Of a stretch of DNA of 64,000 nt, positions 9,399 through 64,000 are shown in pieces. The stretch is from Diabrotica undecimpunctata. Taxonomy: Eukaryota > Arthropoda > Insecta > Coleoptera > Chrysomelidae. A program made the translations under genes and the position numbers. Location of the stretch: positions 111,335,231 through 111,399,230 of the forward strand of contig NC_092806.1 in the NCBI RefSeq assembly GCF_040954645.1, written 5' to 3'. The notes beneath the pieces were generated by a model. The model was not told the origin of the DNA. It ran no database searches and saw nothing but the letters and a program-made list of their open reading frames with translations. Every line of letters starts with the position of its first letter. Position 1 is the stretch's first letter.

Positions 9399-9843
9399 AA
9401 TATCAAGTCTTCTTCTTCTTAAAGTTCCATCTCCTATCGGAGGTTGGATATCATAACGGCTATGGTCACTTTATTGACTTCTGCTCTGAAAAGTTGTAAT
9501 GAACTACAGTTAAACCATTCTCTAAGGTTCCTCAGCCAGGAGATGTGTATTCTTTCTATGCTTCTTCTTCCTTGGATCCTTCCTTGCATAATAATTCTCA
9601 GCAGCTCATATTTTTCTCCTCTGGTTACGTGACCCAAATACTCTAGTTTTCTTCTTTTTATGCTGTTTATAATTTCTAACTCCTTATTTAGACGTCGTAG
9701 TACCTCAGCATTGGTAATCCTTTGAACCCACTGAATTTTTAATATTCTTCTGTAACACCACATTTCGAACGCTTCTATTTTTCTTATGTGTTGTTTCTTC
9801 AATATCCAAGCTTCCATTCTGTATAGTAAGATAATATCAAGTC
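9399..9843 (-). mobile_element. LINE family A, 5'-truncated insertion with 11-bp target duplication
   Basis: The insertion proper is 9410-9832. On the minus strand 9817-9434 reads IRKIEAFEMWCYRRILKIQW, RKLEYLGHVTRGEKYELL and HISWLRNLREW, the same tail as at 5595-6017, 16492-16785 and 33089-33670. It ends with a 3' region whose plus strand starts TCTTCTTCTTCTT. The flanks carry AATATCAAGTC at 9399-9409 and again at 9833-9843, an exact 11-bp target-site duplication. Only the last part of RT is present, as expected from incomplete reverse transcription. Confidence 0.85.
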
Positions 9844-59959: not shown

Positions 59960-60600
59960 ATGTCTGGTCTATTAATGACTGACCAGGCATGAATTACCTT
60001 TCATGAAGTGCAAATTGTGTAAGAATGTATTTTATATATTCAAGTGGGTTATGTCTCTGTAATTGATATATTCAAGCTGATTGCATTTTTTATGTAATAG
60101 ACACGGTGAACCAATATTCCATTCTTCAAACATTTGCTTTTTTTTTCCGTCTTTTTCTGTCGGTGCCAAATTGGGTCCTCCTAAAGTTAGCAGTTATAGT
60201 GGCAAGGTGTTTTTGTTTTTCAGCTAGTCGAAATAGCTATTCGGGATTGCGTATAACTGTAGAATTACGAATATTACTTAGCCTTTATATTTACTGGTTT
60301 TCGTAAGTGATTTCATGTTTAGAAACTTTTAGGAAATTCTTCAATTGTGCACCTGATCTCTTTATTCGTAGCTACATCTCTTCTGCGATGTAAGTTTTTC
60401 AATATTATGTCGTTTTATCTGTAGAGAAGCAGTATAGTGCGATTATAATATCATAAATTTTATCTTAGCGATATTTATTTTCAGACCAATTTATTTTTCT
60501 TTCGAGTTAACGTAAAAGGTAATATAAAACAAGATGACAGTGTCCTTAGTGTATCGAATAGTATTAATTAGTTCACCATTGATTTTTATTCCAAAATCTT
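59960..60600 (-). pseudogene. LINE RT scraps, two pieces
   Basis: The minus strand 60120-60020 reads EEWNIGSPCLLHKKCNQLEY and INYRDITHLN, a decayed RT box 1 (usual form W..G..CP.YKKGD, NYRGI.LLN). 60600-60440 reads KINGELINTIRYTKDTVILF then GLKINIAKIKFMI, a decayed catalytic-loop block with YTKD in place of YADD. The order on the strand is inverted relative to a single RT, so these are remnants of two copies. Confidence 0.5.
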
Positions 60601-60802
60601 TATCTTGTAAATCCTGCTTAACCACTGGTGACGTGTCGTCAAAATGACGTATCGCAACTGCTCGTTAATTCGGGATCCCCACTTACTCCACATTTGTACG
60701 GTCGGCACTCTCAGTACCTCTCAATTTAGTCATCGAAAGTACATAGCAGAAATTTGTTGCATTTTTGAGCAATATATTTTAAATTACCACGTGTAGAAAA
60801 TC

Positions 60803-60829
60803 ACAATACGTCAAATTGACGACACATCA
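60803..60829 (-). repeat. Internal inverted repeat of the piggyBac 5' end
   Basis: Pairs with 60627-60652 as an imperfect inverted repeat of about 25 bp around GTCGTCAA and TTGACGAC; probably the transposase-binding arrangement typical of piggyBac ends. Confidence 0.7.
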
Positions 60830-60869
60830 CAATTCACGTAACTATTTCAATAAATTGTGCAATATAAAA

Positions 60870-61799
60870 ATGGCCAGTTCACGCAAGAAAATAAAAGTGA
60901 GTGATGCAGATTTTAGTAATATTGCATTACAATGGTATAACGAATGTGACAGTGACCTTGATAATTCTGACGACGGCATATTGAATGAAACTTTTATACC
61001 TAGTGAGCACGAAACAGATAGTGAGCAAAAAGGCGATAACAGTGATAATAATAGATAGCAGTGAAGTTTTGTTACCTTCTGAAGAAACAAGTACTACACC
61101 TGAAAGCGAGGATGAAGGTAATAACGATAAAAAATATTTTTCTGCTAAAAATAGATAAGAGGTCAAGCGTTCCTCCAGCAAAAAATGTGCGGACTGCTGT
61201 ACATAACATAATCAAGATTCCCACTGCAATTCATTTACCCGAAAATAATCGTAAGTACATATTAGAAAGATTATTATCTGAAAATATAGCTACTATAATA
61301 CTAGAGTGGACCAATCAGAAATTATCTACTCTAAGGAGCAAGTATGCAAATGATAATAGGTCAGAATTAGCTGATGTAGACACAGTTAAGTTTAGAGCTC
61401 TCTTAGGATTGCTATTACATTCATCAATATTTAAATCGAGTCACGAAGATGTCGACTCATTCTTTGCTACAGACGGAACTGGCAGAGATATCTTCCGTTC
61501 CGTAATGTCGAAGAAAAGATTCTTGACTATTTTAAGCGCTCTGAGATTTGACAATCCTTTTACACGCGATGAAAGAAAGAAGATCCATGTGCTGCTATTT
61601 CTGATTTTTTTTTACATGTTTATACAGAACTTTCAGAAGCTATACTCTATTGGTACCACTGGATGCATCGATGAAATGCTTATTGGATTTAGAGGGAGAT
61701 GCAAATTCAAGATCTACATGCTACAAAAGCCTGCAAAATATGGAATTAAAGTAATGTGTCTAAGTGATACCCGAACCAGTTATTTGTTAAATGCCTATA
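60870..61799 (+). pseudogene. piggyBac-like transposase, N-terminal part, interrupted
   Basis: MASSRKKIKVSDADFSNIAL at 60870 opens an acidic N-terminus (NSDDGILNETFIPSEHETDS) broken by frameshifts near 61045 and 61150. From about 61160 one frame runs to 61799: PPAKNVRTAVHNIIKIPTAI, FRALLGLLLHSSIFKSSHED, RDIFRSVMSKKRFLTILSAL, RFDNPFTRDERKK, GCIDEMLIGFRGRCKFKIYM with the first catalytic Asp, and GIKVMCLSDTRTSYLLNAY with the probable second Asp. The mariner insertion follows, and the gene resumes at about 63961. Catalysis is TTAA-specific cut and paste; this copy is dead through shifts and insertion. Confidence 0.86.
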
Positions 61800-62400
61800 C
61801 AGGCTGTTTTAATAAGGTATGTCATAAATTAAATCACGCATTCCAGGGACAATAATAAATTGATTGAATCCAACTTACCTTAGTACAAAAGTGTACACAA
61901 AAAAAGTTACAGTCCTTTGAAGTTCTTCTTCTTTAAGTGCCGTCTCTCGATCGGAGGTTGGATATCAACATCACTATCTTTACTCTATCTACTGCTGCTC
62001 TGAAGAGTTCTATCGAACTGCATTTAATCCAGCCACGAAAATTCTTCAACTATGACATTCTCCTTCTTTCTATACTCCTTCCTCCTCTTATCCTTTAAAG
62101 TTACAAAATAAAAATTGTTTTTTGCATTATCTTCTAAACAACTTGATATTTTGTAATAAAAATGGACACGTTACTTCCTTGTTCTGAAATCATTTTTCAT
62201 ACAAAAGAAACAACATATCTAAGCGCACAGAAAAATTTTAAGGGGGGTGTGCAACTGTGCAGCCCTAAATCCCCCCAAAAATCTGAGTTCATTCAAATCA
62301 AATGAATTTTGTGGCATCATTAGTTTAATACATTAGTTTTAAAATTTTTTGCCCCCTATCACTTTTTCGAAAAACTAGTTTTTTCCTAGTGTGTCATAAA
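61800..62400 (+). repeat. Left long terminal inverted repeat
   Basis: About 425 bp of element sequence plus the 166-bp LINE insertion and one 12-bp target copy. Partner of 63530-63958. Confidence 0.88.
61913..62102 (-). mobile_element. LINE family A 3' fragment with 12-bp target duplication
   Basis: Insert 61925-62090. The minus strand gives LKNFRGWIKCSSIELFRAAV and DRVKIVMLI, the family A C-terminus, with a CTTCTTCTTT end on the plus strand. Flanking copies TCCTTTGAAGTT (61913-61924) and TCCTTTAAAGTT (62091-62102) differ at one base. The uninterrupted right repeat of the host transposon reads CCTTTGAAGTTAC in the matching place, proving the insertion. Confidence 0.88.
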
Positions 62401-62519
62401 ATTACAGTTAGTTTCTACGGATACAATAATTACAAACAGTTCTATCACTAATAGTCAATAATTTGAAGCTATCATTTATTGTGGGAATAAGATTAATATT
62501 AAACATTTTGAATATTACA

Positions 62520-63435
62520 ATGGCCTACACATTTCAGGAAATGGTAGATATGCATTTAACTTTGGGTAAGTTGGATCAGATTAAATTATGATTTCAATAA
62601 ACTATCGGGAATATCGTAGGTTAATGTCAAGGAAATAGTGCAGCAGCCGCAAGGCTTTAGGCAGTAAAAAAAACCCCAATCGAAATAGACGATAGACGAT
62701 TATTTCTGACCATTGATCGTCGTTTACGGGAAACGGGTACATTCCAACCGCAAGTTGCTGGCAATAGTGGCCGTTCAATAAAGGATACAACTGATGAAGA
62801 CATTTTAGAAATCATTGAAGAAGTCCTTGGAACAAGTACAAGGGTAATAGCTGCTCAACTAAACGTTCCTCACGTAAGGGTTTGGAGGATCAGCTGCTTA
62901 AACTCTATCACTTAACAACGGTTCAAGAGTTATTGGTTTAAGATTATCCTAAAAGGATTGGATTTTGCGATTGATTGTTAATGGAAAACACTCGAAATGT
63001 TAATTTTATTAAAAATATTTTGTTTACCGACGAGGCTACCTTCAGTAGAAATGGAATAACAAACCATCATAACGAGCACATTTGGGCCGACGAAAATCCT
63101 CACGCCAAAAACACGAGTAATCACCAAAGGACTTTCAAAGTTTGGGCAGGAATTGTGGATAACAATTTAATAGGCCCAGTGTTTCTTCCCAACAATTTAA
63201 ATGGTGATAATTATTTGCAGTTCCTGGCAAACGATTTACAAGAGTATTTGGAAAAAATGAATATTGCAATAAGGCAAAATATGTGGTTTCTACAAGATGG
63301 CGTTTCACCGCATTACAATAATGAAATCAATTTCGTCGGAAAAATATGATTTTTCAGCGCATTCGGTTTTCCTTGTTAAAACGATACCGAATGTGTATTG
63401 AAGAAAATGGGGGTCGTTTTGAACATTTATTGTAA
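62520..63435 (+). pseudogene. Mariner-like transposase, third catalytic block deleted
   Basis: The ATG at 62520 gives MAYTFQEMVDMHLTLG; after stops and shifts, IDRRLRETGTFQPQVAGNSG and EDILEIIEEVLGTSTRVIAA QLNVPH form the paired DNA-binding region. 62975-63349 reads ILFTDEATFSRNGITN with the first catalytic Asp, HIWADENPHA, FKVWAGIVDNNLIGPVFLPN, and MWFLQDGVSPHY with the second Asp. Soon after FVGKI the frame ends. The expected WPPRSPDLTP block with the third Asp is absent, and the sequence picks up at YRMCIEENGGRFEHLL ending at 63433-63435. About 60 residues appear to have been deleted. Confidence 0.85.
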
Positions 63436-63529
63436 TAGCATATTTATAGAGGTTATATACATTTTTTGTGTTTGTTAATTCATTTAAGCCATTTATTTAG
63501 TTGCACGTAATTTTTTAAAGGATAATGAA

Positions 63530-63958
63530 AAGGGCCGTAACTCAATAAAAACTGAAAACTGAAAAAATTTTTTTTGAAAAAAATGATAAGAGGCAAAAAC
63601 ATTTTAAAAATTATGTGTTAAACTACTGATGCCACAAAATTCATTTGATTTGAACATACTCAAAAATTTGGGGGGATTTAGAGCTTCAAACCCACCTTAA
63701 AATTTTTCTGTGCACTTAGATTTTATTGTTTCCTTTTTATGAAAAATTCTTTCAGAACAAGAAAGTAACGTGTCCATTTTTATTACAAAATGCCAAGTAG
63801 TTTAGATGAGAATGCAAAAAAACTATTTTTATTTTGTAACTTCAAAGGGCTGTAACTTTTTTTGTGTACACTTTTGTACTAAGGTAAGTTGGATTCAATC
63901 TATTTTTGTCATCGGAATGCGTGATTTAATTTATGACATACCATTTTAAAACACCCTG
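63530..63958 (-). repeat. Right long terminal inverted repeat
   Basis: Uninterrupted partner of 61800-62400, about 428 bp; its reverse complement follows the left repeat with scattered substitutions and small indels. Confidence 0.88.
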
Positions 63959-64000
63959 TATATAAGGAGGAAAAAATACCGATGGAGTAGGCCTAGATGA
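63959..64000 (+). pseudogene. piggyBac-like transposase, continuation
   Basis: After the TA duplication, the frame joined to 61799 reads a TAA codon, then GGKNTDGVGLD to the window edge. It matches the position after the LLNAYIY-type block of piggyBac transposases, so it is the other side of the interrupted gene. Confidence 0.8.

What the first reader, a model, noticed from the sequence alone, without database searches (positions are those of the whole stretch)
60618..64000. Three-deep nest: LINE inside mariner inside piggyBac, each with readable target duplications
TTAA plus an inverted-repeat arrangement marks the piggyBac start. A mariner-like element with TA duplications sits in its transposase frame, and the frame continues beyond it. 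A 166-bp LINE A fragment with a 12-bp duplication sits in the left mariner repeat. The insertion order is therefore unambiguous: piggyBac, then mariner, then LINE A.
Basis: seen in the sequence. Interest (0 to 1): 0.75.

Follow-up and report, generated by a model that had tools for sequence, protein, structure and literature searches.

The report
Transposons nested inside transposons, four deep
In a large, probably beetle, genome a jumping gene sits inside a second, which sits inside a third, which itself lies inside an old fourth one; all are broken relics of ordinary kinds, and the stack records the likely order in which they landed.

Summary
A piggyBac element runs from TTAA 60618-60621 to a second TTAA about 1.2 kb right of the window (65192-65195 on the extended scale). 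A long-TIR mariner-like element (61800-63958, TA duplication) interrupts its transposase frame. A 166-bp LINE 3' end (61925-62090, 12-bp duplication, 11 of 12 identical) sits in the mariner's left repeat. Of 29 other piggyBac loci examined, 24 show the uninterrupted site and 5 do not show that stretch. Of 20 other mariner loci, 0 hold the LINE; 18 keep the empty site in the left repeat, 1 has a deletion there, 1 lacks that repeat. The piggyBac and mariner copies are broken, the LINE pieces fragments. Ordinary nested-transposon biology: well supported, low surprise.

The parts
60308..60621 (-). outermost layer: fragment of an old LINE (reverse-transcriptase region, minus strand) that hosts the piggyBac; its homology resumes right of the window after the second TTAA (65196 onward, L001:1196 onward)
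   Evidence: Seven relatives fetched by left-flank similarity (of 39 other loci scored): 5 align well across the joined flanks, L067 goes 13 bases past the join and resumes, L065 stops at the join and resumes. Right flank alone beats the best of 200 shuffles in 7 of 7, narrowly in L062 (24 v 20) and L064 (34 v 29). RVT_1 in relative L064
60618..60621 (.). left TTAA target duplication of the piggyBac; the right copy is outside the window at L001:1192-1195
60622..64000 (+). piggyBac element (continues to 65191 outside the window); 2409 bp without the mariner and one TA; transposase broken by a frame change, stops and the mariner
60628..60652 (+). subterminal inverted-repeat arm of the piggyBac left end (partner 60806-60830)
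   Evidence: 25 nt, 88% complementary
61055..61799 (+). piggyBac transposase, left part (PF13843 profile positions 4-172; IDEM motif at 61667)
61798..61799 (.). left TA duplication of the mariner
61800..63958 (+). mariner-like element (IS630-Tc1-mariner group, long TIRs) with the LINE inside its left TIR and about 196 bp of the transposase missing near 63328
61800..62385 (+). left TIR of the mariner (about 400 nt without the LINE and one duplication copy)
61913..61924 (.). left 12-bp target duplication of the LINE (TCCTTTGAAGTT)
61925..62090 (-). 5'-truncated 3' end of a LINE: C-terminal codons, stop, GAA-type tail
62091..62102 (.). right 12-bp target duplication of the LINE (TCCTTTAAAGTT, 1 mismatch)
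62520..63420 (+). decayed mariner transposase reading (ends approximate), with a candidate 54-nt intron at 62566-62619
   Evidence: homologue P0045 is uninterrupted there
63561..63958 (-). right TIR of the mariner
63959..63960 (.). right TA duplication of the mariner
63961..64000 (+). piggyBac transposase resumes after one sense codon and a stop (GGKNTDGVGLD); continues in L001

Best explanation
Four successive insertions by ordinary transposition. An old LINE fragment (minus strand) was there first. A piggyBac element inserted by cut-and-paste at a TTAA within that LINE's reverse-transcriptase region. A long-TIR mariner-like element then inserted at a TA in a TA-repeat inside the piggyBac transposase gene. 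A LINE transcript was finally copied in by target-primed reverse transcription, leaving only its last 166 bp and a 12-bp duplication in the mariner's left TIR. Shown: the layers, their boundaries and the empty sites. Inferred: the enzymatic mechanisms (from established knowledge of the families) and that each layer landed at this very locus rather than travelling as a composite. The piggyBac and mariner copies are broken: the piggyBac transposase carries a frame change and stops and, by eye, lacks Asp at its third catalytic position; the mariner copy lacks about 196 bp that hold its third catalytic Asp region.
For: Uninterrupted site in 24 of 29 other piggyBac loci (most reading close to AATGCCTATATATATGGAGG; L029, L031, L045, L023 and L033 differ by small indels); the other 5 do not span it. 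Zero-gap joins on the locus map in several. PF13843 positions 4-172 and 188-285 on the two sides; homologues matched on both sides. LINE in 0 of 20 mariner loci; its empty site intact in the left TIR of 18 of 20. Second TTAA and right TIR end found. Outer LINE aligned well across the join in 5 of 7 relatives.
Against: Divergence from the majority of sister copies does not fall from outer to inner: piggyBac 90 of 2356 sites, mariner 82 of 1826, LINE 11 of 166, with no significant difference (p 0.31, 0.24, 0.10); this mariner copy and this LINE copy are the most diverged of the sets used (ranks 20 of 20, 17 of 17, 8 of 8), though those sets hold the best-matching copies. Left piggyBac end 4 bases short; LINE duplication 1 mismatch in 12.
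Confidence: 0.93

Rival explanations
1. The LINE entered a mariner copy elsewhere, and that LINE-bearing mariner later jumped into the piggyBac; the outermost 125 bp of its left TIR lie outside the LINE, so it could have been mobilised in trans.
For: The nest alone cannot separate the two histories; the LINE piece is not less diverged than the mariner.
Against: No sister mariner with the LINE: 0 of 20 loci examined; among the rows printed (40 loci scored of 3517 candidates, further rows not printed) only the window's own copy covers the LINE stretch.
Confidence: 0.06
2. Assembly chimera or collapsed repeats produced an artificial nest.
For: All layers are multi-copy families, which can mislead assemblers; no reads were available to me.
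Against: The junctions fall at terminal repeats or ends with the duplication expected for each family, and the interrupted frame and Pfam profile resume in register.
Confidence: 0.01

Closest known systems
piggyBac superfamily in beetles (PMC12732532: passages found by search terms)
   Same: TTAA duplication, CCCT TIR start in sister copies (the paper calls CCCT the commonest start), DDE_Tnp_1_7 transposase, 2409 bp without the insert (the paper gives 2074-3465 bp for intact elements); best named homologue Callosobruchus chinensis, 52% over 81%
   Different: decayed copy, shortened left end, mariner in its gene
LTIR / Lsra-like DD40-41D elements of aphids (PMC5490172: passages); DD41D/VS in bees (PMC8472432: passages)
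   Same: long TIRs (about 400 nt here, about 460 nt in the aphid elements), total about 2.2 kb in a sister copy (L003; 2.3-2.4 kb in aphids), D as third catalytic residue, TA duplication
   Different: 43 residues between second and third D in 11 of 12 readable sister copies, 40 in the other, where the papers give 40-41; candidate 54-nt intron. No tree against the published families was built
LINE (non-LTR retrotransposon) with RVT_1 and GAA-type tail
   Same: 5'-truncated 3' end, target duplication, RVT_1 in a longer relative
Nested transposon insertions in general (PMC2517846, PMC3903597: search listing and start of abstract only)
   Same: TEs interrupting TEs, usable for relative dating
   Different: nothing in kind; this is one locus

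Membership tests
piggyBac | TTAA target duplication at both ends | tested here: met
   60618-60621 and 65192-65195
piggyBac | matching terminal inverted repeats | tested here: met
   ACTGGTGACGTG near both ends; left end 4 bases shorter than in sister copies
piggyBac | DDE_Tnp_1_7 transposase | tested here: met
piggyBac | catalytic Asp triad in this copy (activity, not membership) | tested here: not met
   IDEM and ADNW motifs present, third position not Asp where relatives P0002 and P0018 have GVD (aligned by eye, triad recalled)
IS630-Tc1-mariner, long-TIR DD41D type | TA target duplication | tested here: met
IS630-Tc1-mariner, long-TIR DD41D type | long TIRs (about 460 nt in aphid LTIR elements) | tested here: met
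   about 400 nt
IS630-Tc1-mariner, long-TIR DD41D type | DDE_3 transposase | tested here: met
   window piece below the cut-off (15.1 against 28.6 bits); homologues P0043-P0045 above it
IS630-Tc1-mariner, long-TIR DD41D type | 40-41 residues between second and third catalytic residue | tested here: not met
   43 in 11 and 40 in 1 of 12 readable sister copies, of 20 (both residues D in 7 of the 11). Homologues: 41 in 21, 43 in 15, 44 in 1, one mis-anchored 63, of 38 readable among 120 tested
IS630-Tc1-mariner, long-TIR DD41D type | groups with LTIR/Visitor in a transposase tree | not tested
   no published reference sequences were fetched
LINE (innermost piece) | reverse transcriptase in longer copies | tested here: met
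   RVT_1 43.3 bits in L053; L054, the other fetched locus with a long RT-like reading, was not tested in Pfam
LINE (innermost piece) | 5' truncation with target duplication | tested here: met
   the 5' edge is uncertain by a few bases because matches to other copies run on to 62095

The most novel reading that the evidence does not exclude
The mariner belongs to a distinct beetle sub-lineage of the long-TIR DD40-41D elements, marked by a 43-residue D-D spacing and a small spliced intron in its transposase gene, and this locus gives a four-layer record of LINE, piggyBac, mariner and LINE activity.
Probability: 0.35. Interest if true: 0.3.

Novelty: new member of a known kind. Interest (0 to 1): 0.18.

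Why it matters
It is a clean stratigraphic record: with orthologous loci in relatives it could order bursts of four TE families in this insect lineage. It also points to a long-TIR mariner family with a 43-residue spacing. By itself it changes no view of how these elements work.

Tried and rejected
Scans of viral contigs with the piggyBac and mariner proteins found no relatives. The Rfam and tRNA scans of the window gave nothing. Dating the layers by divergence gave no resolved order. In note 1 I read the right piggyBac edge as frameshifted by 2 bases; the sister copies show that it is in frame with a stop codon, so that reading was dropped. Notes 1 and 2 give the mariner deletion as about 191 bp and the LINE empty site as 20 of 20; the recount gives about 196 bp, and 18 of 20 for the left TIR. 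Preferred insertion of mariner into piggyBac: 1 of 29 other piggyBac loci (L051) holds a short piece of the same mariner family at another place; no test was run. L024 has a LINE-like sequence starting near 61792; not pursued. Genome searches with the right outer flank and with the right piggyBac half did not complete, so the outer layer rests on the left-flank search plus alignment of the 7 fetched loci. Paper searches: DD43D listed 10 of 15 hits, none about transposons by title; nested TE with piggyBac and mariner (3 hits), nested TEs and beetle (2 hits), Diabrotica with piggyBac and mariner (3 hits), nested insertions (8 of 138 listed). No listed title reports this nest, and the held library is only part of the literature.

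Full report
Where it lies. The window is G000:C4:111335231-111399230 of a 1.74-Gb assembly in 2867 contigs, several over 100 Mb. The named relatives of the mariner protein listed are all beetles (Hypothenemus, Diabrotica balteata, Euwallacea), and the best named relative of the piggyBac protein is the beetle Callosobruchus chinensis, although the other named piggyBac hits are mixed (butterfly, cockroach, frog, stick insect, beetles and others). A beetle host is therefore likely (inference).

Layer 2, piggyBac. TTAA stands at 60618-60621, with ACTGGTGACGTG just inside and a subterminal inverted pair. Extending the assembly by 10 kb (L001) shows the other end, with TTAA at 65192-65195. Most sister left ends printed are 4 bases longer than this one. 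Without the mariner and one TA the element is 2409 bp. The transposase is DDE_Tnp_1_7 left of the mariner (105.5 bits, profile positions 4-172) and resumes right of it at profile position 188 (47.8 bits); many homologues match on both sides. T. ni piggyBac matches at E 1.8e-22. The copy is broken: its N-terminal reading is in another frame and ends at a stop, a stop follows the mariner, and further stops come later.

Layer 3, mariner. The element is 61800-63958 with TA on each side. One search scored 40 of 408 candidate loci for the piggyBac left part and gave 30 loci, one of them the window's own. Of the 29 others, 24 span the site without the insert, some with small indels, and 5 (L024, L044, L046, L049, L051) do not span it. 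The TIRs are about 400 nt. I took 20 mariner loci by hand from the listing (40 scored of 3517 candidates). Against them this copy lacks a stretch near 63328: 161-204 bp in 16 of 20, exactly 196 in 9; the other 4 are not simple there. In sister copies that stretch encodes WPPRSPGLNPMD with the third catalytic Asp. Second and third residue are 43 apart in 11 and 40 apart in 1 of 12 readable copies. The homologue search gave 492 proteins, 120 listed; of these 120 my pattern could read 38: 41 residues in 21, 43 in 15, one 44, one mis-anchored 63. Published long-TIR elements with DD40D/DD41D and about 460-nt TIRs in aphids are the closest described group that I found (PMC5490172, passages); a paper on bees treats DD41D/VS as one family and reports DD40D in bumblebees (PMC8472432, passages). 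A 54-nt stretch at 62566-62619 with intron-like ends and in-frame stops looks like an intron: of 20 loci, 17 were found by the start pattern, 15 keep GTAAGT and 16 keep TATCGTAG; homologue P0045 runs through without it (by eye). Splicing is not shown.

Layer 4, LINE. 61925-62090 is 166 bp, minus strand, with the C-terminal codons RSRDGT, a stop and a GAA-type tail, between TCCTTTGAAGTT and TCCTTTAAAGTT. Its other listed genomic matches are 92-94% identical (40 scored of 1443 candidates), and a longer relative, L053, carries RVT_1. Of 20 mariner loci, 0 hold the LINE. The empty site is intact in the left TIR of 18 of 20; L014 has a deletion over it and L021 does not show a left TIR there. A right TIR spans the site in 19 of 20.

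Left of the piggyBac the minus strand reads DKDFGIKINGELINTIRYTKDTVI, which I read as a reverse-transcriptase motif. In the genome search with this flank, 34 of the 41 rows other than the window's own end at query positions 607-618, at or near the TTAA edge (40 scored of 129 candidates). Of seven fetched relatives, five align well across the joined flanks (E 1.5e-43 to 4e-49); L067 goes 13 bases past the join and resumes later; L065 stops at the join and resumes. The right flank alone beats the best of 200 single-base shuffles in 7 of 7, narrowly in L062 (24 v 20) and L064 (34 v 29). Relatives are about 63-71% identical over the longer alignments, so this LINE is old. Right of the piggyBac the homology breaks off near 65413-65463 and resumes near 66656-66674, with another LINE's C-terminal-like stretch between: probably a further insertion beside the piggyBac, not resolved.

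Order and age. Topology gives old LINE, piggyBac, mariner, LINE. Divergence from the majority of sister copies is 90 of 2356, 82 of 1826 and 11 of 166 sites for layers 2-4. After a coverage filter these used 19 and 11 of 29 piggyBac loci (left, right part), 19 and 16 of 20 mariner loci (core, right part) and 7 of 7 LINE loci. No difference is significant, so the clock neither supports nor contradicts the order. The loci were the best-matching ones, and this mariner and LINE copy are the most diverged of their sets. Nesting orders events in the lineage of the carrying copy; a composite jump is the one serious rival, and no sister composite was seen among the loci examined.

Judgement. The finding is correct and somewhat understated in depth, but ordinary: nested transposons are a well-known kind of thing (established knowledge; PMC2517846 and PMC3903597 seen as listings), and the layers belong to known kinds.

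Noticed in passing
window 62566-62619: Candidate 54-nt intron in the mariner transposase gene, conserved in sister copies.
   Followed up: partly
L001:1414-2673 (about 65414-66673 on the extended scale): Apparent further LINE-like insert, minus strand, interrupting the outer LINE to the right of the piggyBac; boundaries not resolved.
   Followed up: partly
L051:2138-2561: A short piece of the same mariner family inside another piggyBac copy at a different place.
   Followed up: partly
L024 after base 2676: A LINE-like 3' end begins in another piggyBac copy near the position equivalent to 61792, close to the mariner's target site.
   Followed up: no
L035 and L041: Two other piggyBac copies carry inserts of about 1.3 and 1.0 kb near 61703-61719 with 13- and 9-base overlaps that may be target duplications.
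   Followed up: no
window 9410-9581: A second piece 73% identical to the innermost LINE 3' end lies in the same window.
   Followed up: no
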